From an uncultured Bacteroidota bacterium (GTDB lineage Bacteria > Bacteroidota > Bacteroidia > Chitinophagales > Chitinophagaceae): a stretch of 64,000 nt of DNA. How positions within the stretch are numbered: position 1 is the stretch's first letter; every line of letters begins with the position of its first letter. Location of the stretch: positions 1 to 64,000 of the forward strand of contig CAIJXT010000014.1 of assembly GCA_903824665.1 (NCBI GenBank). Direction: 5' to 3'. Positions 1-40,837 of this stretch are shown here, piece after piece. The notes under the pieces were generated by a model. It did no database searches, had not been told where the DNA came from, and saw only the letters and a program-made list of their open reading frames with translations. A program made the position numbers and the translations under genes.

Positions 1-98
1 ATTACCGCAATTCTGCGCTTAAATACACTGTCGTATTTGTGGCCATTCTTTTGGGGACGGTTCCCCTTGCCTCGCTTTTTAAGTTGATTGTTTTCCAT
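1..98 (-). CDS. Partial transposase OrfA-like N-terminus (IS3-type), runs off left edge
   Basis: Reading the minus strand from the ATG at 98 gives 32 open codons to the window edge. The peptide is basic, beginning MENNQLKKRGKGNRPQ and later containing KYDSVFKRR. This resembles the start of IS3-family OrfA proteins, which are small helix-turn-helix DNA-binding proteins with a Y-x-x-x-FKxxV-type opening. The rest of the gene lies outside the window. A perfect hairpin (100-122) abuts the start codon and a plausible IS terminus lies at 140, so start, hairpin and end fit one element. The family call rests on a short peptide and is moderate. Confidence 0.5.
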   Translation of the reverse strand, partial: MENNQLKKRGKGNRPQKNGHKYDSVFKRRIAV

Positions 99-99
99 T

Positions 100-122
100 G
101 TTTACACGTTTTATGTGTAAAC
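100..122 (-). promoter_or_regulatory. Hairpin abutting the transposase start codon
   Basis: The 8-bp arms GTTTACAC (100-107) and GTGTAAAC (115-122) pair perfectly around a 7-nt loop. On the minus strand the hairpin ends one base before the ATG at 98. In IS elements such hairpins can hide the ribosome-binding region from read-through transcripts; that role is inferred here. Confidence 0.5.
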
Positions 123-179
123 TTTTTTCGGGACTAGACACAAAATTGCGCTGTTGCAGGGAAGCCGGACGAAGTGCTT

Positions 180-1199
180 TTACAGCCCTGCAAGCTTCGC
201 TTTTATGTAATCCAGCGATTGATTGGTCAAATTGGCTGTTACCGTCATGCCATCAACAGCTGGCAACCCAGTTTGCTCGAAATAATAAAATTTGTCTTCT
301 ATTTTTGACATTACAATAATGCTTATTGGCATACCTACCGGAACCCCGTGCCATACATCTGCCCCACCTAATTCAAAAGTATTTGTAGCTGGGACGTATC
401 TACAGGGAGTAGCGACGGCATTAACAGAAGGCAAAACGATGAAAACCCTCGTCCTGAGGTTTTTGTAAATTGTATCAGCAAGGACGATGTTTATCTGAGC
501 TCTGGGGCCTCTATCAGCAAGCACGTCGCAATTAATAAAATTAAAATTGGTACAAGAGTCGAAAATATTGTAGGATATAAAAGTAACAGTATCTAAAGTT
601 GTACCTGCAGCTGTGGTTCCTGGCAAACCACCACCAGTGAACCCCCAGGTTACAACAGAATCCTTGTTATTTGTATTTCCATAGAATAATTCCATAGGGA
701 GTGTCGAGGGAGCAGGTTGTTTAAAGGCTATGCCATACTTATTGGCATATACTTTCTGTCCATCTTTGGTAGCGTTGATATGCACCTGCCCCCCACTGCG
801 AAGCAGGTCTGTGCTGGTGGTTGTTGTCGCCATGTTCGAGATCATATCTCCCGGCTTGTACATTTCTATCATTTCAATGCACACTGTGCCGCTGGTGATG
901 GTTGCGCCGGCTGCGTTTTTAAAAGAATTGGGATAGAAAGTGAGCCGTGTGCCCTTGCTGAAGGTAACCACTTGCAGAATGCCTGCGGTTACACACTTTA
1001 CCTCGGGGGTATAGCGCAGGTCTTTGAACAATTGATTGAGCGAGGTTTGTGAGCCACCTGGGAAGGTGGCTGGCTGGCCGCCGGTGCTGATAGGACCGGT
1101 ATTGATATCTGTAGTACGATTATTGTTGGGTTTGCGGCAGCCTGCTATCAACAACAGGGCCATGCAGGCAACCATGAGAATTGCGTGGGTGGACTTCAT
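180..1199 (-). CDS. Tandem-duplicated surface lipoprotein, copy A
   Basis: This 339-residue protein has a signal peptide ending in the lipobox LIAGC (Cys21), so it is probably lipid-anchored and exported. Residues about 50-165 carry a domain with the pattern LTFYPNSF...SGTVCIEMIEMYKPGDMI...LLRSGGQVHINA. I recognise this style from N-terminal domains of Bacteroidota surface proteins, but no function is known to me. The C-terminal half contains FDSCTNFNFINCD and is divergent. It lies 34 bp downstream of a paralog (1234-2250) on the same strand. The N-terminal halves are nearly identical and the C-terminal halves are not, so this is a duplication with C-terminal diversification. Confidence 0.85.
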   Translation of the reverse strand: MKSTHAILMVACMALLLIAGCRKPNNNRTTDINTGPISTGGQPATFPGGSQTSLNQLFKDLRYTPEVKCVTAGILQVVTFSKGTRLTFYPNSFKNAAGATITSGTVCIEMIEMYKPGDMISNMATTTTSTDLLRSGGQVHINATKDGQKVYANKYGIAFKQPAPSTLPMELFYGNTNNKDSVVTWGFTGGGLPGTTAAGTTLDTVTFISYNIFDSCTNFNFINCDVLADRGPRAQINIVLADTIYKNLRTRVFIVLPSVNAVATPCRYVPATNTFELGGADVWHGVPVGMPISIIVMSKIEDKFYYFEQTGLPAVDGMTVTANLTNQSLDYIKAKLAGL

Positions 1200-2250: not shown

Positions 2251-2400
2251 AAGTTGTTATTATTAATTATTTCTTAAACAAGTAGACGGTTTTTTACGGC
2301 AATGCGTTAGGTGGATCGGGGATATTTTTTTGGATGCTGCGTCGCTCCGTTGGCTGCGCACATACTCAAATTAGGAGAAATGTGGCAGGGGTTGCGTTTT

Positions 2401-2575
2401 TTGCGCACTTTGGAAAAATATTTTAAAGAATGTTAAATAATTGATTATCAATGAAATAGGTTCTTAAAATTGCGCACTTTTTGCGCACTTTTTTCATGCA
2501 GAAAAATGGCATGTGAGCAATGGCCGGTATTGCGCTAGGGTACCAGATAGGCCACAAAAATTGAGCCAGAAAGCA
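2401..2575 (+). repeat. Dispersed site cassette, copy 1 (three TTGCGCACTT sites plus palindrome)
   Basis: TTGCGCACTT occurs at 2401-2410, 2470-2479 and 2481-2490, all in the same orientation. The near-perfect palindrome TTGATTATCAA sits at 2441-2451. Spacers are 30, 18 and 1 nt. Further right come CATGCAGAAAAATGGCATG (2495-2513) and a block around 2552-2575 with CCACAAAAA, GAGCCA and GCA. The same order, with the same 30/18/1 spacings, recurs in opposite orientation at 40419-40584, where the spacer sequences differ. It is non-coding. A recombinase attachment site or transposon end is the leading inference. Confidence 0.75.
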
Positions 2576-23963: not shown

Positions 23964-26900
23964 ATGAAAAGAATCTACTTTATCCTGTCATTTTGTTTCC
24001 TTTACCTGAGCAGTAACGCACAGACTGCAGCAACTTATGGGTTCACGGCATTGAGTGCGCCTTTTTCCAGTATTGCACTTACAGGCACACTTATACCAAC
24101 ACTTAGCGATGATGATGTCACCGAACTTGCGATACCAATCGGTTTCAACTTCGATTATTGCGGCACAACCTACACTTCTTTGTCGGCATGCAGCAATGGC
24201 TGGTTATCGTTGAATAATTCGCCCAGTCTGGATTTTGATAATATTGAATTGTTAATAGACGGGCCTGGTTGGATAATGCCATATTGGGACGATCTGGATG
24301 GTTTTTTTACCGGTGCGGTGTTTTGCGCTACCACCGGTATAGCACCCAACAGGGTGTTTACCATTGAGTGGAATAATTACGAATCACTTGTTGGGTTTGG
24401 CAGCGTGACTTTTCAGGTGAAACTATATGAAACTACCAACATCATTGATTTCCATTACGGGTTGTCTACGCTTTTTGGTTCAGATGCTACGATGGGTATT
24501 TCAAACGACAATATTTCGGACTGGCAAACCTTATCTGATGAGAGTGCAGCGCCTACGGCATTGCTGGCTCCGTTGTTTATCAATACTATAGTTGGTACGC
24601 CAGCCGATGGTCAGATATACCGCTGGACTCCCAGCAGTTGCGTAGTGAGCACTATTGCAGGTACGCTTACCACATGCCCCGGCGCTACCACTACACTTAC
24701 CAATGCTACCGCAGGCGGCACATGGAGCAGCAGTACACCAGCCGTAGGCACCGTGGGCAGCACCAGCGGTGTAGTTTCAGGGCTCTCTGCCGGTACTACT
24801 ACCATTACTTACACGGCATCTCCCGGCTGTTTTGCTACGGCTGTGGTTACAGTGTCTGCTATTACCCCCGTTACCGGAACGTATACGGTTTGTACAGGTT
24901 CCACAACTACACTGGGGCACGTTACCGCCGGAGGCACATGGAGTAGCAGCGCACCGGCCATAGCAACAATTAATGCAACAACTGGAGAGGTGGCCGGTCT
25001 GACACCGGGTACCGCTACCATGGCCTATACATTGCCGGGTGGTTGTGTGGCCAATGCCGTGGTGACAGTCTATGCAACGCCTGCCGCCATAACTGGTACG
25101 TTGTTGCTCTGTCAGGGCAATACCAACACTTTGGCATCAACAACGCTGGGTGGTGCGTGGAGCAGCAGTCTTACAGGAGTAGCGACAATAGATGCCGGTC
25201 TGGGCAATATTACAGGCATAGCCGGTGGTACAACAACCATATCTTATACTATGCCCAGCGGCTGTTACAGCCTGGCAATAGCCACGGTTAACCCCACTCC
25301 GGGAGTCATAACTGGCGGCACATCTACCTGCCTCGCAGGCACACTGGCGTTATCGAGCACCACATTCGGCGGTACATGGAGCAGCACCACGCCTGCCACA
25401 GCCACTATTAATGCGTCTACCGGTGTACTGACGGGAATAGGCAGTGGTACCACTACGGTATCTTATACACTGGCATCAGGTTGTTTTACAACGTTGGTTG
25501 TTAGTGTAACATCTGTTGTGGCACCCATTACCGGCGACATACAAGTATGTAGGTTTGATAACAGCCTGCTCGGTTGCACAACCCCGGGTGGTACCTGGAG
25601 TAGCAGCGCGCCGGCTATTGGCACAATTGGTGCAGCAACGGGCTTATTTCAAGCGTTGAGTGCCGGTACCACAACTATAAGTTATACACTGGGGTCAGGG
25701 TGTTTTACTACAGCTATAGTAACCGTTGATCCGGTTGAGTTGATAGGCGGCATTGCGACTGTGTGCCCCGGCAGCACGATCACTATGACCAATGCCGTAG
25801 CCGGTGGAACCTGGGCCAGTGCCAATACCGCAGTCTTTACTGTAAATGCCGGTGGTGTAGTTACAGGCATAAGTGCCGGAACAGTAAATATTTCTTATAC
25901 CAATCCCTTTGGTTGTAGCATAGCTACACCTATAACGGTCAATCCGTTACCGACGGCAATTGCCGGAGATCTGCTTATCTGTGTGGGTACCACATCTACA
26001 CTTAGCAGTGGGCCTGCAGGCGGTGTGTGGTCACACACACCGTTGGGTGCAGTATCAATAGACGGTGTTACGGGTATAGTGACAGGGGTATCTGTAGGGG
26101 TTTCAGAAGTGACTTATACCAACCCTGCAACCACCTGTATGGTGCGTGCAGCTGTGACTGTAGATCCGGCTCCGGCCGCAATCACCGGCGGTATGTCGGT
26201 TTGCCCTGGCAATACATCTGCCCTTGGGCATCCGGTATCGGGCGGCACATGGGCCAGCAGCAACGCAGCAGTAGCTTCTATAAGCGCAACGGGCGTATTA
26301 ACGGGTGTTGCACTGGCAGGTGGCACAGCTACCATTTCTTATACATTACCCACCTCGGGCTGTGTGGCTACAAGGGTAGCAACAGTGCTGCCTGCGCCTG
26401 CCGCAATTGGCGGGGCGCTTACCGTATGCGTAGGTGCTACTACAGCGCTCACATCTGCAGGGGCGGCATGGAGCAGCAGCAACACCGCGGTAGCTACAGT
26501 GGGGGCAGGAACAGGAACTGTAGGTGGCATCAGCGCAGGCACAGCAACCATAATTGCTACAGGTGCCAACACATGCACAAGGTCGGCAGTGGTTACCGTT
26601 AATGCCAATCCCGGCGCTATCACAGGTACTGCTATTTTCTGTGCGCAGAGCACCACAACATTGGCAGCAGCGCCTGCAGGTGGTGCATGGAGCAGCAGTA
26701 ATCTGCCGGTAGCAACTGTGAATGGTGGCGGTATCGTAGCCGGCATCAATAACGGCACTGCCACAATATCTTATACACTACTGGGGTGCTCCAGTACCAG
26801 AATTGTGACTGTGCAGCCATTGCCTGCCATCTTCACTCCGGCAGCACCAACAACAGTTTGTCTGGGTCTTACCACAACACTCAATAGCACACCGGGTGGC

Positions 26901-28931
26901 ACATGGAGCAGCAGCAACATACCGGTAGCCGATATTGGTTCCACAACCGGAGTTGTAACAGGCAATGCGACAGGCACTGCGGTTATCACCTATACATTGC
27001 CTAGCGGTTGCCTGCGTACACGTACTATTACAGTGAATCCGTTGCCGGCTGCAATAGGTGGGGCAACAAGCATATGCCCCGGTTCAACTGTCACTTTGAC
27101 CAATACATCTCCCGGCGGCACATGGAGCAGCAGCAATACTGCCGTTGCAACTATCGTAACCGGGTCTGGTGCGGTGACGGGTGTAGCGGGAGGCACCAGT
27201 ACAATAACGTATACGGTGGGTACTGGCTGTATCAGCACAGCGGTAATGAGCGTTATTTCGGCGCCCATCGCAGCAATAACAGCAATTGGTGATACAAATC
27301 TTTGCCCTGGCGACTTTGTGACGCTTACCTCCAGCGCGGCCATAGGTGCTACATACGAGTGGTATGATGGTGGCGTGCTTATACCCACAGCTACTACGCC
27401 TACCTATATCACCAGCGCTGCAGGCAGCTATCAGGTGCGCGTGAGCATATCTGCTGGTTGTACCACATTGTCGGTCCCCAAAACCGTATCTGTGTTCCCC
27501 GCTACTGCTTCGATCACCGTGCCCGGTGGTGTTACTACTACCTGTGCAGGGTCGCCGGTGGCGCTTGATGCCAATACCGGCGTGGGGCTTACTTACCAGT
27601 GGCAACTGGGTGGTGCGCCAATAACCGGTGCAACAGCGGCTACGTACAATGCTGCAATAAGTGGCAACTACACGGTAAGGGTAACGAATGCGCAGGGATG
27701 CTGGGCCGTGTCCGCACCGGTTTCGATAACAGTAAATCCTACACCATCCAATGTGGTGACCGCCTCTGGTCCGCTGACATTCTGTAATGGCGGCAGCGTC
27801 ACGTTGTCGGCAGTTGCCGGCTTTACATATCAGTGGTACAACAGCGTTGGTGCCATAGCTGGTGCTACTGCTGCATCCTTCACTACGTCCACTCCTGAAG
27901 ATTATTATGTGGAAGTTACCGGAGCTGGCGCATGTATTGGTACATCTGCTATCAGCACGGTAATAGTTAATCCGTTGCCCGATGTATCTATTACTCCCGG
28001 CGGTACGCGCGTGTTTTGTGCAGGTGGCAATGTGCAGCTCGATGCTGCTGCCGGATATGGCTATCAGTGGTATCGCAATGGTACCGCACTTGCAGGCGCT
28101 ACCAATGCTACATATTTTGCCTTCGCATCTGGTGGTTATCGGGTAGAGGTTACAGACCTTGCTACAGGCTGCACAGATATGACCCATGCCGATACTGTTG
28201 TAACGGTAATCTCTTCGCCAACTTCATTGCCACTCACGCCATCTACGTTTTGCTGGGGTGGCAGTTCGCTATTGTCTACCAGTGTGTCTGGTCTGGGCAG
28301 CGCGCTCACTTATCAGTGGTTCTTCAATGGTGTAGCAATACCGGGAGCAGTTGCAGCAAATTACACTGCAGGTGTTAGTGGCAATTATCATTGCCGAATA
28401 GCTGTACCGGGCAGCTGCACTATTTTGACCAATACGGTACCGGTAACAGAGATGCCACTGCCCGATCCGCCAATAACCTTTAACGGAACAATATTCCAGA
28501 CCGGCAGCTACTATGTAAGTTATCAGTGGTATAAGAATCTCGTTGCCATTCCGGGCGCAGTGGCAAATACCACTCCGGCAACCAGCGACGGTAATTATAA
28601 AGTAGCGGTAACGGATACCAATGGCTGCCAGTCTGTATCGTCGGTATATGTACTTACTGGCTGGAAGGGAGGCTCACCGGGTACAGGTGTGACGAACGTG
28701 AACACTACTGACATCAGTATCTTCCCCAACCCGGCTGCAGAGACAATATATATAGCCTGCGAGATGAAGGTGCGTGCTGTTGTGAGCAGCATAGACGGAA
28801 AGGTGCTGATTACAGCGGAAAATGCTAAAGAGATAAGCCTGAAGGGTCTTGCTGACGGTGTTTACATCGTATCGTTGTACGACGAAAATGGTCAGCAGCT
28901 GAAAGTGCAGAAGTTGGTAAAGCGCCAATAA
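23964..28931 (+). CDS. Giant T9SS surface protein with 12 Big_2-like and 6 Ig-like repeats
   Basis: This 1655-residue protein has a signal peptide ending SSNAQ (residue 20). Residues about 22-225 form a beta-sandwich region with FNFDYCGTTYTSLSACSNGWLSL. Twelve tandem repeats of about 72 residues (about 229-1100) follow the pattern CxGxTTTL...GGTWSSSNxAVATI...TGVVTGxxAGTATISYTLxxGC, like bacterial Ig-like group 2. Six Ig-like repeats (about 1100-1575) have TYQWYxNGxxIxGAT and GxYxVxVTxxxGC. A type A T9SS sorting domain (about 1580-1655, IFPNPAAETIYI...LADGVYIVSLYD) ends the protein. Nearly every repeat carries a Cys at each end, suggesting disulfides. It is likely an elongated adhesin or structural surface protein. 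It has its own promoter and terminator. Confidence 0.9.
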   Translation: MKRIYFILSFCFLYLSSNAQTAATYGFTALSAPFSSIALTGTLIPTLSDDDVTELAIPIGFNFDYCGTTYTSLSACSNGWLSLNNSPSLDFDNIELLIDGPGWIMPYWDDLDGFFTGAVFCATTGIAPNRVFTIEWNNYESLVGFGSVTFQVKLYETTNIIDFHYGLSTLFGSDATMGISNDNISDWQTLSDESAAPTALLAPLFINTIVGTPADGQIYRWTPSSCVVSTIAGTLTTCPGATTTLTNATAGGTWSSSTPAVGTVGSTSGVVSGLSAGTTTITYTASPGCFATAVVTVSAITPVTGTYTVCTGSTTTLGHVTAGGTWSSSAPAIATINATTGEVAGLTPGTATMAYTLPGGCVANAVVTVYATPAAITGTLLLCQGNTNTLASTTLGGAWSSSLTGVATIDAGLGNITGIAGGTTTISYTMPSGCYSLAIATVNPTPGVITGGTSTCLAGTLALSSTTFGGTWSSTTPATATINASTGVLTGIGSGTTTVSYTLASGCFTTLVVSVTSVVAPITGDIQVCRFDNSLLGCTTPGGTWSSSAPAIGTIGAATGLFQALSAGTTTISYTLGSGCFTTAIVTVDPVELIGGIATVCPGSTITMTNAVAGGTWASANTAVFTVNAGGVVTGISAGTVNISYTNPFGCSIATPITVNPLPTAIAGDLLICVGTTSTLSSGPAGGVWSHTPLGAVSIDGVTGIVTGVSVGVSEVTYTNPATTCMVRAAVTVDPAPAAITGGMSVCPGNTSALGHPVSGGTWASSNAAVASISATGVLTGVALAGGTATISYTLPTSGCVATRVATVLPAPAAIGGALTVCVGATTALTSAGAAWSSSNTAVATVGAGTGTVGGISAGTATIIATGANTCTRSAVVTVNANPGAITGTAIFCAQSTTTLAAAPAGGAWSSSNLPVATVNGGGIVAGINNGTATISYTLLGCSSTRIVTVQPLPAIFTPAAPTTVCLGLTTTLNSTPGGTWSSSNIPVADIGSTTGVVTGNATGTAVITYTLPSGCLRTRTITVNPLPAAIGGATSICPGSTVTLTNTSPGGTWSSSNTAVATIVTGSGAVTGVAGGTSTITYTVGTGCISTAVMSVISAPIAAITAIGDTNLCPGDFVTLTSSAAIGATYEWYDGGVLIPTATTPTYITSAAGSYQVRVSISAGCTTLSVPKTVSVFPATASITVPGGVTTTCAGSPVALDANTGVGLTYQWQLGGAPITGATAATYNAAISGNYTVRVTNAQGCWAVSAPVSITVNPTPSNVVTASGPLTFCNGGSVTLSAVAGFTYQWYNSVGAIAGATAASFTTSTPEDYYVEVTGAGACIGTSAISTVIVNPLPDVSITPGGTRVFCAGGNVQLDAAAGYGYQWYRNGTALAGATNATYFAFASGGYRVEVTDLATGCTDMTHADTVVTVISSPTSLPLTPSTFCWGGSSLLSTSVSGLGSALTYQWFFNGVAIPGAVAANYTAGVSGNYHCRIAVPGSCTILTNTVPVTEMPLPDPPITFNGTIFQTGSYYVSYQWYKNLVAIPGAVANTTPATSDGNYKVAVTDTNGCQSVSSVYVLTGWKGGSPGTGVTNVNTTDISIFPNPAAETIYIACEMKVRAVVSSIDGKVLITAENAKEISLKGLADGVYIVSLYDENGQQLKVQKLVKRQ

Positions 28932-40276: not shown

Positions 40277-40837
40277 TTGGCACCAGCGGAAAAGCAGAGA
40301 GTGAAACACATGTGCACTCAGCTCCTGATTTGTGGAGCATACCGGATTCGAAGTTTTTCGAACAGGATTTGGAGTGGTTTCAAGGTCTTGACTAGAAACA
40401 GCATGCAAAAATAATAGATGCATTTTGGCTCGGTTTTTGTGGCATATTACTTGTAGCCCCTGGCAGCAAACATGCAATTTTTCTCCATGGCAGCAAGTGC
40501 GCAAAAAGTGCGCAAAAATGCAATCCCATAGTGTTGATTATCAGCTATTTGTGATTTTTCAATTTTTTCAGTGCAAGTGCGCAATTTTCTATTGCACAGT
40601 CGTTTTAGGGTACTTATACGGCAGCTCCGGTGCCGTTAGTGTAGACCTGTCAGGTAAATATCCGCATGTCAGTTCCCAATAAAAGTGGGTATTTGTTTTG
40701 CAGAAATGCGCACTGCAGGCAATAACAGTGAAAGATGTAACTTTTCCTGTCGTCACTGTAGTAACTTCATTCCCGATTGGATGCAGTTGGCAAACGAAGC
40801 ACCCGGTACAACAGTTATGTAAAATTGCCACCACCAG
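40277..40837. other. 561-bp intergenic stretch before tamB
   Basis: No credible gene. It holds a tRNA-3'-end-like string on the minus strand (40331-40353), cassette copy 2 (40419-40584), and a weak -7-like box TAAAATTG just before the tamB start. The part 40585-40810 shows nothing I can assign. Confidence 0.6.
40419..40584 (-). repeat. Dispersed site cassette, copy 2
   Basis: In inverted orientation to copy 1: AAGTGCGCAA at 40575-40584, 40506-40515 and 40495-40504, and the palindrome-like TTGATTATCAG at 40534-40544. On the minus strand, spacers are 30, 18 and 1 nt, exactly as in copy 1. The flanking CATGGAGAAAAATTGCATG motif and the CCACAAAAA...GAGCCA...GCA block also match. Spacers themselves are unrelated in sequence. 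The two copies lie 38 kb apart as inverted repeats. Confidence 0.75.

What the first reader, a model, noticed from the sequence alone, without database searches (positions are those of the whole stretch)
2401..2575. Two inverted dispersed cassettes with identical three-site/palindrome geometry
TTGCGCACTT three times and a TTGAT-T-ATCAA-type palindrome recur at 2401-2575 (+) and 40419-40584 (-). Between the single site, palindrome, and the paired sites the gaps are 30, 18 and 1 nt in both copies. The paired sites have an 11-bp period (one helical turn). Spacer sequences differ, but site sequence and spacing are preserved, as expected of a multi-protein DNA complex under selection. Outer blocks (CATGnAGAAAAATnGCATG and CCACAAAAA..GAGCCA) also match. 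Arm sites flanking a small core resemble the attachment site of a tyrosine recombinase or the end of a non-autonomous transposable element. Regulatory or chromosome-organising sites are alternatives.
Basis: partly seen in the sequence, partly recalled or inferred. Interest (0 to 1): 0.85.

Follow-up and report, generated by a model that had tools for sequence, protein, structure and literature searches.

The report
Terminase-linked dispersed repeat family
Two odd stretches of DNA are members of a large family of copied DNA elements in one bacterial genus; one form carries a gene resembling the DNA-recognising part of a virus packaging machine, and the spacing of the sites changes in steps of one turn of the double helix.

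Summary
The tandem pattern has 135 matches in the genome, 0 for the reversed control. In 107 copies examined the palindrome lies at -40 or -29 from the tandem sites in 101, and the outer site mostly near -92 or -70: both gaps differ by 11 bp. Copies have sharp ends and are mostly intergenic.

Eleven near-identical copies of one gene end in the cassette. All 34 proteins of the family tested match a phage DNA-binding family whose prophage members stand directly before the large terminase. The gene's other flank recurs beside 11 non-coding cassettes, which are therefore gene-less copies with both ends. The two window copies carry a different right end, for which no gene-bearing form was found. 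Other species of the genus keep gene, palindrome and 11-bp repeats with changed letters.

Best reading: a MITE-like family with a partner gene derived from a phage small terminase, whose protein probably assembles on the cassette. The enzyme that moves it is unknown; no RAYT gene was found, and no recombinase gene beside a copy. Binding and mobility are inferred.

The parts
2396..2573 (+). Cassette copy A, whole (approximate ends)
   Evidence: family left end; right end ...GCCA(A/G)AAA
2401..2410 (+). Outer site TTGCGCACTT; in many other copies half of an inverted repeat
2441..2451 (+). Core palindrome TTGATTATCAA, -29 type
2470..2490 (+). Tandem sites TTGCGCACTT-T-TTGCGCACTT, 11-bp period
2495..2513 (+). 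CATGCAGAAAAATGGCATG block
   Evidence: related blocks in other copies
2551..2568 (+). Right-end box GCCACAAAAATTGAGCCA at +81
   Evidence: 31 of 31 boxes (up to 2 mismatches) in the fetched DNA lie downstream of a cassette
40421..40589 (-). Cassette copy B, whole (approximate ends)
40575..40584 (-). Outer site TTGCGCACTT
40534..40544 (-). Core palindrome CTGATAATCAA, -29 type
40495..40515 (-). Tandem sites TTGCGCACTT-T-TTGCGCACTT
40426..40443 (-). Right-end box GCCACAAAAACCGAGCCA at +72

Best explanation
The two window cassettes are non-coding copies of a repetitive element family of this bacterial genus. A gene-bearing form, about 1.0-1.1 kb, holds one gene related to the small terminase of Mu-like phages; the cassette, in reverse orientation, is its 3' end and encodes part of the protein's C-terminus. 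Some non-coding copies are this element without the gene; others, including both window copies, have the same cassette but another right end. Inferred mechanism: the helix-turn-helix protein assembles as a multimer on the cassette, on one face of the helix, with the palindrome bent or held by the same or a second protein; the complex marks the element's end for an enzyme supplied in trans, which spread gene-bearing and gene-less copies separately in each species. Shown: copy number, ends, link to the gene, spacing rule, presence in relatives. Inferred: protein binding, multimer, mobility. Unknown: the enzyme.
For: Copy number. Spacing: core at -40 in 61 and -29 in 40 of 107; outer site at -91 to -93 in 55 of 61 and -69 to -71 in 35 of 38. 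Sharp ends: pairwise identity 0.26-0.29 outside, 0.41-0.51 in spacers, 0.68-0.73 in the core, 94 copies. Aligned gene copies lose similarity just past the cassette. The gene's 5' flank recurs in 12 hits beside 11 non-coding cassettes, out of 14 hits that are not gene copies; seven further places keep only the end of the protein. Protein family: 34 of 34 hit PHROG 4151 and Pfam Terminase_5; homologue directly before the large terminase in prophages. Relatives: palindrome perfect or one mismatch in 25 of 58 loci (about 2.5 expected); 11-bp tandem in 10 of 58 (0.1 expected); same layout in G027. Separate multiplication per species. Fits small-terminase wrapping of A/T runs with GC steps (passages of PMC4737164).
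Against: No gene-bearing form with the window copies' right-end box was found; three distant paralogues checked lack it within 1.5 kb upstream. No binding data, no empty site, no target duplication seen (not a full test). The protein has no recognised catalytic domain. Prophage terS homologues in six loci lack the cassette and a perfect palindrome (one has a one-mismatch palindrome upstream). The HTH also resembles IS630 models in 16 of 34 members, terminase in 15, and solved HTH regulators. Copies are related, so the two spacing types may reflect few events; 4 of 107 copies sit at -41 and G027 varies by 1 bp. Five of the ten 11-bp tandems in relatives come from one genome. The predicted structure is of low confidence.
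Confidence: 0.5

Rival explanations
1. Ordinary MITEs of an undetected transposase. The terminase-like gene is a passenger or regulator, and the cassette is an end recognised by a transposase missing from the assembly, for example that of the IS whose end sits beside cassettes.
For: An IS-end motif has 11 places in the genome, 9 of them beside cassettes in the same orientation (compared). IS copies are collapsed at contig ends. The HTH resembles IS630 models weakly in 16 of 34 members.
Against: The gene-cassette link holds in many species with diverged proteins. No rve integrase domain or Y1 transposase was found in a 99.4% complete genome, though the IS itself is mostly unassembled.
Confidence: 0.22
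2. A regulatory network: the domesticated small-terminase-like protein is a regulator and the cassettes are its operators or terminators near genes.
For: 88 of 106 intergenic; between co-directional genes 27 loci point against and 6 with transcription (p = 3e-4); helical phasing.
Against: Distances to start codons are broad, 16-916 bp. The gene next to copy A has no G000-type site cluster in 27 readable upstream regions of relatives. Sharp ends, tandem units and gene-less copies look like copying.
Confidence: 0.12
3. Chromosomal pac-like sites: the terS-like protein with a phage or phage-like large terminase starts packaging of chromosomal DNA at cassettes, as in transduction or gene-transfer agents.
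For: Protein family and G000's own prophage-like locus with PHROG 38 large terminase. P22 pac lies in terS, SPP1 pac has direct repeats at the start of terS (passages). Median spacing of sampled loci 40.6 kb.
Against: No cassette at six prophage terS loci. The spacing resembles a phage headful only by size and was measured on sampled loci. No particle data.
Confidence: 0.08
4. Attachment site of a tyrosine recombinase.
For: Core with arm-like sites; tandem arrays at 26 of 80 loci.
Against: PF00589 has 3 matches, none within 3.7 kb of a listed cassette; no constant target sequence was seen by eye at the flanks.
Confidence: 0.03
5. Polar chromosome-organising sites read by the replication or segregation machinery.
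For: Cassette strand agrees with local positive GC skew at 62 of 79 loci at 1.5-4 kb, p = 4e-7.
Against: The effect fades by 7-10 kb (47 of 79); neighbouring loci agree in 28 of 53 pairs; no site cluster beside the one orthologous gene examined.
Confidence: 0.02

Closest known systems
REP/BIME repeats with RAYT (Y1 tyrosine transposase)
   Same: Over a hundred short dispersed intergenic repeats, often in pairs, linked to a gene of mobile-element origin (REP features from passages of PMC3733652).
   Different: REPs are 20-40 bp palindromes (abstract start) with GTAG or CGTC tags; here a 170-195 bp multi-site cassette, no Y1_Tnp in the genome, partner gene of another family.
MITEs (non-autonomous derivatives of insertion sequences)
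   Same: Gene-less copies carrying both ends of a gene-bearing element; sharp ends.
   Different: No terminal inverted repeats or target duplication seen; no transposase in the gene-bearing form.
Phage small terminase and its pac/cos site
   Same: N-terminal HTH and helical region; homologues stand directly before the large terminase in prophages; recognition DNA in or next to terS (P22, SPP1; passages). Lambda cosB with repeated R sites and an IHF site is recalled.
   Different: Here the gene is multi-copy, dispersed, with a long C-terminal extension and no large terminase beside it, and its presumed site is dispersed over 100 times.
Phage-inducible islands (PICI) with their own terS (recalled)
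   Same: A chromosomal terS used by a selfish element.
   Different: Here one gene in about 1 kb, no integrase or replication genes, many scattered copies.

Membership tests
REP / RAYT | Y1 tyrosine transposase gene in the genome | tested here: not met
   PF01797: 0 matches in G000; control found in 5 of 14 genomes
REP / RAYT | 20-40 bp palindrome with GTAG or CGTC tag | tested here: not met
   Consensus of 43 and 61 copies shows a longer multi-site layout; REP definition from PMC3733652 abstract start and passages
MITE | Both ends of a gene-bearing element without the gene | tested here: met
   Right-end profile beside 11 non-coding cassettes. Not met for the two window copies, which carry another right end
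MITE | Terminal inverted repeats and target site duplication | tested here: inconclusive
   None seen by eye at 27 box-type and 10 gene-type junctions; no empty site available
Tyrosine-recombinase attachment site | Recombinase gene beside a copy | tested here: not met
   3 PF00589 matches, none within 3.7 kb of a listed cassette
Tyrosine-recombinase attachment site | Strand exchange at the core | not testable with these tools
   -
Phage small terminase | Sequence family of TerS | tested here: met
   34 of 34 hit Terminase_5 and PHROG 4151; 32 hit a PHROG named terminase small subunit. Other HTH models also match weakly
Phage small terminase | Gene next to a large terminase | tested here: inconclusive
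   True of homologues in 5 fetched other-genus stretches and G000's prophage-like locus (large terminase recognised in 5 of these 6, the sixth not tested). Frames around the multi-copy genes were listed for a few copies only, with no family search
Phage pac/cos site | Specific binding by TerS and cutting by TerL | not testable with these tools
   -
Known RNA family | Match to an Rfam model | tested here: not met
   0 matches at gathering thresholds in the window
Integron attC | Integron integrase and attC boxes | not tested
   Only PF00589 in general was searched

The most novel reading that the evidence does not exclude
A new class of mobile element: a phage DNA-packaging recognition module (small terminase plus its pac-like wrapping site) that left its phage, lost the large subunit, and proliferates in the chromosomes of a whole genus as gene-bearing and gene-less copies, using the packaging-initiation complex as the element's end; the dispersed sites may also let phage-like particles package chromosomal DNA.
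Probability: 0.28. Interest if true: 0.92.

Novelty: new variant of a known kind. Interest (0 to 1): 0.72.

Why it matters
Dispersed repeats with a partner gene are known mainly from REP/RAYT (my knowledge). Here the partner gene is related to a virus packaging protein, and the site layout is kept in whole helical turns while the letters change between species. It offers about a hundred natural variants of one presumed protein-DNA assembly site in a genome, and many species for co-evolution tests. [quoted passage not shown]

Tried and rejected
RAYT/IS200: rejected. Tyrosine-recombinase site: not supported. Replication-arm polarity: GC skew looked promising but neighbours do not agree in orientation; the local skew link stays unexplained. 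Inheritance of a phage pac site: not supported at six prophage terS loci. Lag autocorrelation without a motif was not sensitive; the motif-aware test worked. Flanks of 27 box-type copies were searched left and right apart; hit counts were printed but co-located pairs were not tested, so empty sites among paralogues are not excluded. Viral contigs: one exact pattern hit, with no core palindrome seen upstream; no relative of the protein among 30 candidate stretches. Copy A against plasmids: one 38-base match; copy B against phages: none. The protein against phages: 2 records at 28% identity. Fold search: machine busy at every try. Papers: searches found no paper; 82, 99 and 100 listed 8 of 170, 21 and 145 papers, none on this subject by title and abstract start; one gave two REP/HUH papers, 120 terminase papers. 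Open-licence papers only.

Full report
OBSERVATION. The three TTGCGCACTT sites and the palindrome are at the stated places in both window copies, with gaps of 30, 18 and 1 nt. The tandem pair was searched in the window's whole genome (G000, 4.73 Mb, 35 contigs): 135 matches with up to 3 mismatches, 66 forward and 69 reverse, none for the reversed control (overlapping registers are counted, and only the first places are listed). I fetched 72 stretches around listed places. With the window they hold 106 cassettes, 107 with one later stretch.

ANATOMY. In 107 copies the core palindrome was sought at positions -70 to -15 before the tandem; the best match lay at -40 in 61, -29 in 40, -41 in 4 and elsewhere in 2. 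Of the copies with an outer site of at most one mismatch, it lay at -91 to -93 in 55 of 61 of the -40 type and at -69 to -71 in 35 of 38 of the -29 type. Both gaps therefore differ by 11 bp, one helical turn. Both window copies are of the -29 type. The spacers have diverged: mean pairwise identity 0.41-0.51, core 0.68-0.73, outside the element 0.26-0.29 (94 non-gene copies; the tandem's 0.87-0.95 is inflated because it was the search key). A right-end box GCCACAAAAACCGAGCCA, sought from +60 to +110, follows at +71/72 in 22 and at +81 to +83 in 5 of the 27 copies that have it. All 31 such boxes in the fetched DNA lie within 400 bp downstream of a cassette on the same strand. The outer site is often an inverted repeat TTGCGCA..TGCGCAA. 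Of 80 loci, 54 hold one unit, 25 two and 1 three.

THE GENE. The genome has 11 near-identical copies of one gene (83-100% identical protein where aligned; one copy has stop codons inside), four more distant relatives, and seven places that match only the last part of the protein. All 11 aligned copies end in the cassette, in opposite sense; one of them has a diverged version. Aligned copies stop being alike just past the cassette. On the other side the part common to all copies in the comparison ends about 153 bp before the start codon, and a further block up to GTTTGCCAAAC is shared by most. So the cassette is one end of an element of about 1.0-1.1 kb. A profile of 130 bp before the start codon was run on the fetched DNA: 24 hits at E <= 1.6e-4. 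Ten are the gene copies. Of the other 14, 12 lie 76-354 bp downstream of 11 non-coding cassettes in the same orientation; two lie 1471 and 1953 bp downstream, with another long frame between. Weaker hits (26, to E 0.8) are mixed and include opposite-strand hits. So at least 11 non-coding cassettes are gene-less copies with both ends. The window copies are not among them: they end in the box described above. Three of the four distant paralogues in G000 were checked; each has the palindrome (0, 0, 1 mismatch) 40-41 bp after its stop codon, and none has the box within 1.5 kb upstream.

WHAT THE PROTEIN IS. Thirty-four of 34 members (alignment A1) hit Pfam Terminase_5 and PHROG 4151, and 32 hit a PHROG named terminase small subunit. 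The HTH also resembles other models: NCBIfam IS630 transposase in 16 and phage terminase small subunit in 15 of 34, and five weak matches to other HTH proteins of solved structure. Outside the genus the profile finds homologues in 24 of 394 other genomes of a phylum sample, one each except one genome with two (several are weak, HTH-only matches). Six were fetched. In five of them (L252, L254-L257), and in G000's own prophage-like locus (L261), the homologue stands directly before a frame of 513-555 aa (L253 gave no gene call). Four of these frames are PHROG 38 large terminase, one has Terminase_6 domains, one was not tested. The multi-copy gene is thus related to the small terminase of such phages. 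A structure prediction, made for a relative's protein, was all-helical and of low confidence (mean pLDDT 59.6, pTM 0.25).

OTHER SPECIES. The gene is in 33 of 34 other genomes of the genus and in 0 of 25 genomes outside it. Named records of relatives are deposited as Flavipsychrobacter, Taibaiella, Chitinophagaceae or unclassified Bacteroidetes. In 41 of 60 fetched loci the nearest relative is in the same genome; G009 and G028 each have five copies about 93-99% alike in the first 145 residues, so copies multiplied separately. Of the 58 loci with enough 3' sequence, the palindrome is perfect in 13 and has one mismatch in 12; shuffles give 0.2% and 4.1%. A tandem TGNGCAA pair 11 bp apart with at most one mismatch is in 10 of 58, five of them in one genome; shuffles 0.2%; lags 9, 10, 12 and 13 give 1, 1, 2 and 0. 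Of the 12 loci with at most two mismatches in the pair, a palindrome of at most two mismatches lies at +46 in five (four in genome G029, one in G025) and at +36 in one (G014); one has it upstream; five have only poor matches of 3-4 mismatches. G000's two types predict 47 and 36. In genome G027, 19 of 22 cassettes have the core (up to 3 mismatches) at -29 or -30, two to four tandem units, and in 9 a second palindrome at +37. The layout is kept while the letters change.

POSITION. Of 106 cassettes 88 are intergenic, 15 lie in frames (9 of them gene copies and 1 a remnant) and 3 at stretch edges, although 82% of the DNA is coding by a simple frame rule. At 61 independent loci, between co-directional genes 27 point against and 6 with transcription (p = 3e-4); distances to start codons are broad. 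The gene next to copy A was found in relatives: of 29 upstream regions two could not be read (contig start), and the other 27 (about 950 bp or more) show only single sites with one mismatch in four and no cluster; cassettes with other letters would be missed. Cassette strand agrees with local GC skew (62 of 79 at 1.5-4 kb, 47 of 79 at 7-10 kb), but neighbours do not agree in orientation (28 of 53), so this is not replication-arm polarity. Its cause is open.

MECHANISM. Passages of PMC4737164 describe small terminases as rings of HTH motifs, pac DNA as runs of 5-7 A/T pairs with GC or CG steps that favour wrapping, and SPP1 pac as direct repeats spanning the start of the terS gene; a passage of PMC9611059 places P22 pac inside terS. 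The same papers report that binding by such proteins is weak and little sequence-specific, which is against a simple site-reading model and in favour of shape. The cassette, A/T runs with GCGC steps in and beside a terS-like gene, fits such a site. G+C of the aligned copies oscillates near the helical period (best period 9.25-10.25), but the permutation null is lenient. I infer that the protein assembles on the cassette and that the complex marks the element's end. Which enzyme acts is unknown: no Y1 transposase, no rve domain in the assembly, three tyrosine recombinases, none beside a listed copy. IS copies are collapsed at contig ends, including the start of this window, and an IS-end motif lies beside cassettes in 9 of its 11 places (the other two lie outside the fetched DNA). 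An IS transposase is therefore not excluded.

LIMITS. No empty site, no duplication, no binding data. Stretches were chosen around tandem matches, so counts describe them, not a random part of the genome. Paralogues within a genome are not independent, and shuffles keep only base content. Papers: PMC9611059, PMC4737164 and PMC3733652 were seen as abstract start and passages, the others as listings.

Confidence was lowered from 0.55, my figure before writing, to 0.5, and the novel case from 0.30 to 0.28, because the window copies' right end has no gene-bearing form in the data.

Noticed in passing
window 1-140: The contig begins inside an insertion sequence (end TAGTCCCGAAAAAAGTTTACAC; frame start MENNQLKKRGKGNRPQ on the minus strand); contig C13 ends in the same sequence.
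   Followed up: partly
G000 C9:116, C15:116, C15:270909, C24:165754, C24:327875, C1:73784, C1:276115, C3:141833, C33:97686: An IS-end motif CGTCCYGAAATAGGTTTACAC lies directly beside cassettes in 9 of 11 places, same orientation, at offsets (computed by hand) clustering near 44, 55 and 66 bp from the tandem.
   Followed up: partly
L055, L058, L073, L083 (tandem arrays): A second hairpin repeat GTGTGGCACACTTT..AAGTGTGCCACACC sits between units of several arrays.
   Followed up: no
L103-L113 upstream of the gene; L089, L100: Another dispersed hairpin family (..TACTTTTTTCGCTGTAGAAAAAAGTACGAGCGGATGGGCAGATA) near gene copies and cassettes.
   Followed up: no
window 812-1111 and 1863-2162: Two neighbouring genes (339 and 338 aa, no Pfam match) look like tandem duplicates, 85% identical over 300 bp.
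   Followed up: no
window 24671-27226: A 1655-aa frame with internal repeats of about 216-219 bp.
   Followed up: no
L078 852-2805 and L037 9182-10653: A cassette and a gene-type right end enclose another long frame (554 and 289 aa), as if the element carried a foreign gene.
   Followed up: partly
79 loci of G000: Cassette strand follows local positive GC skew within a few kb, without long-range coherence of orientation.
   Followed up: partly
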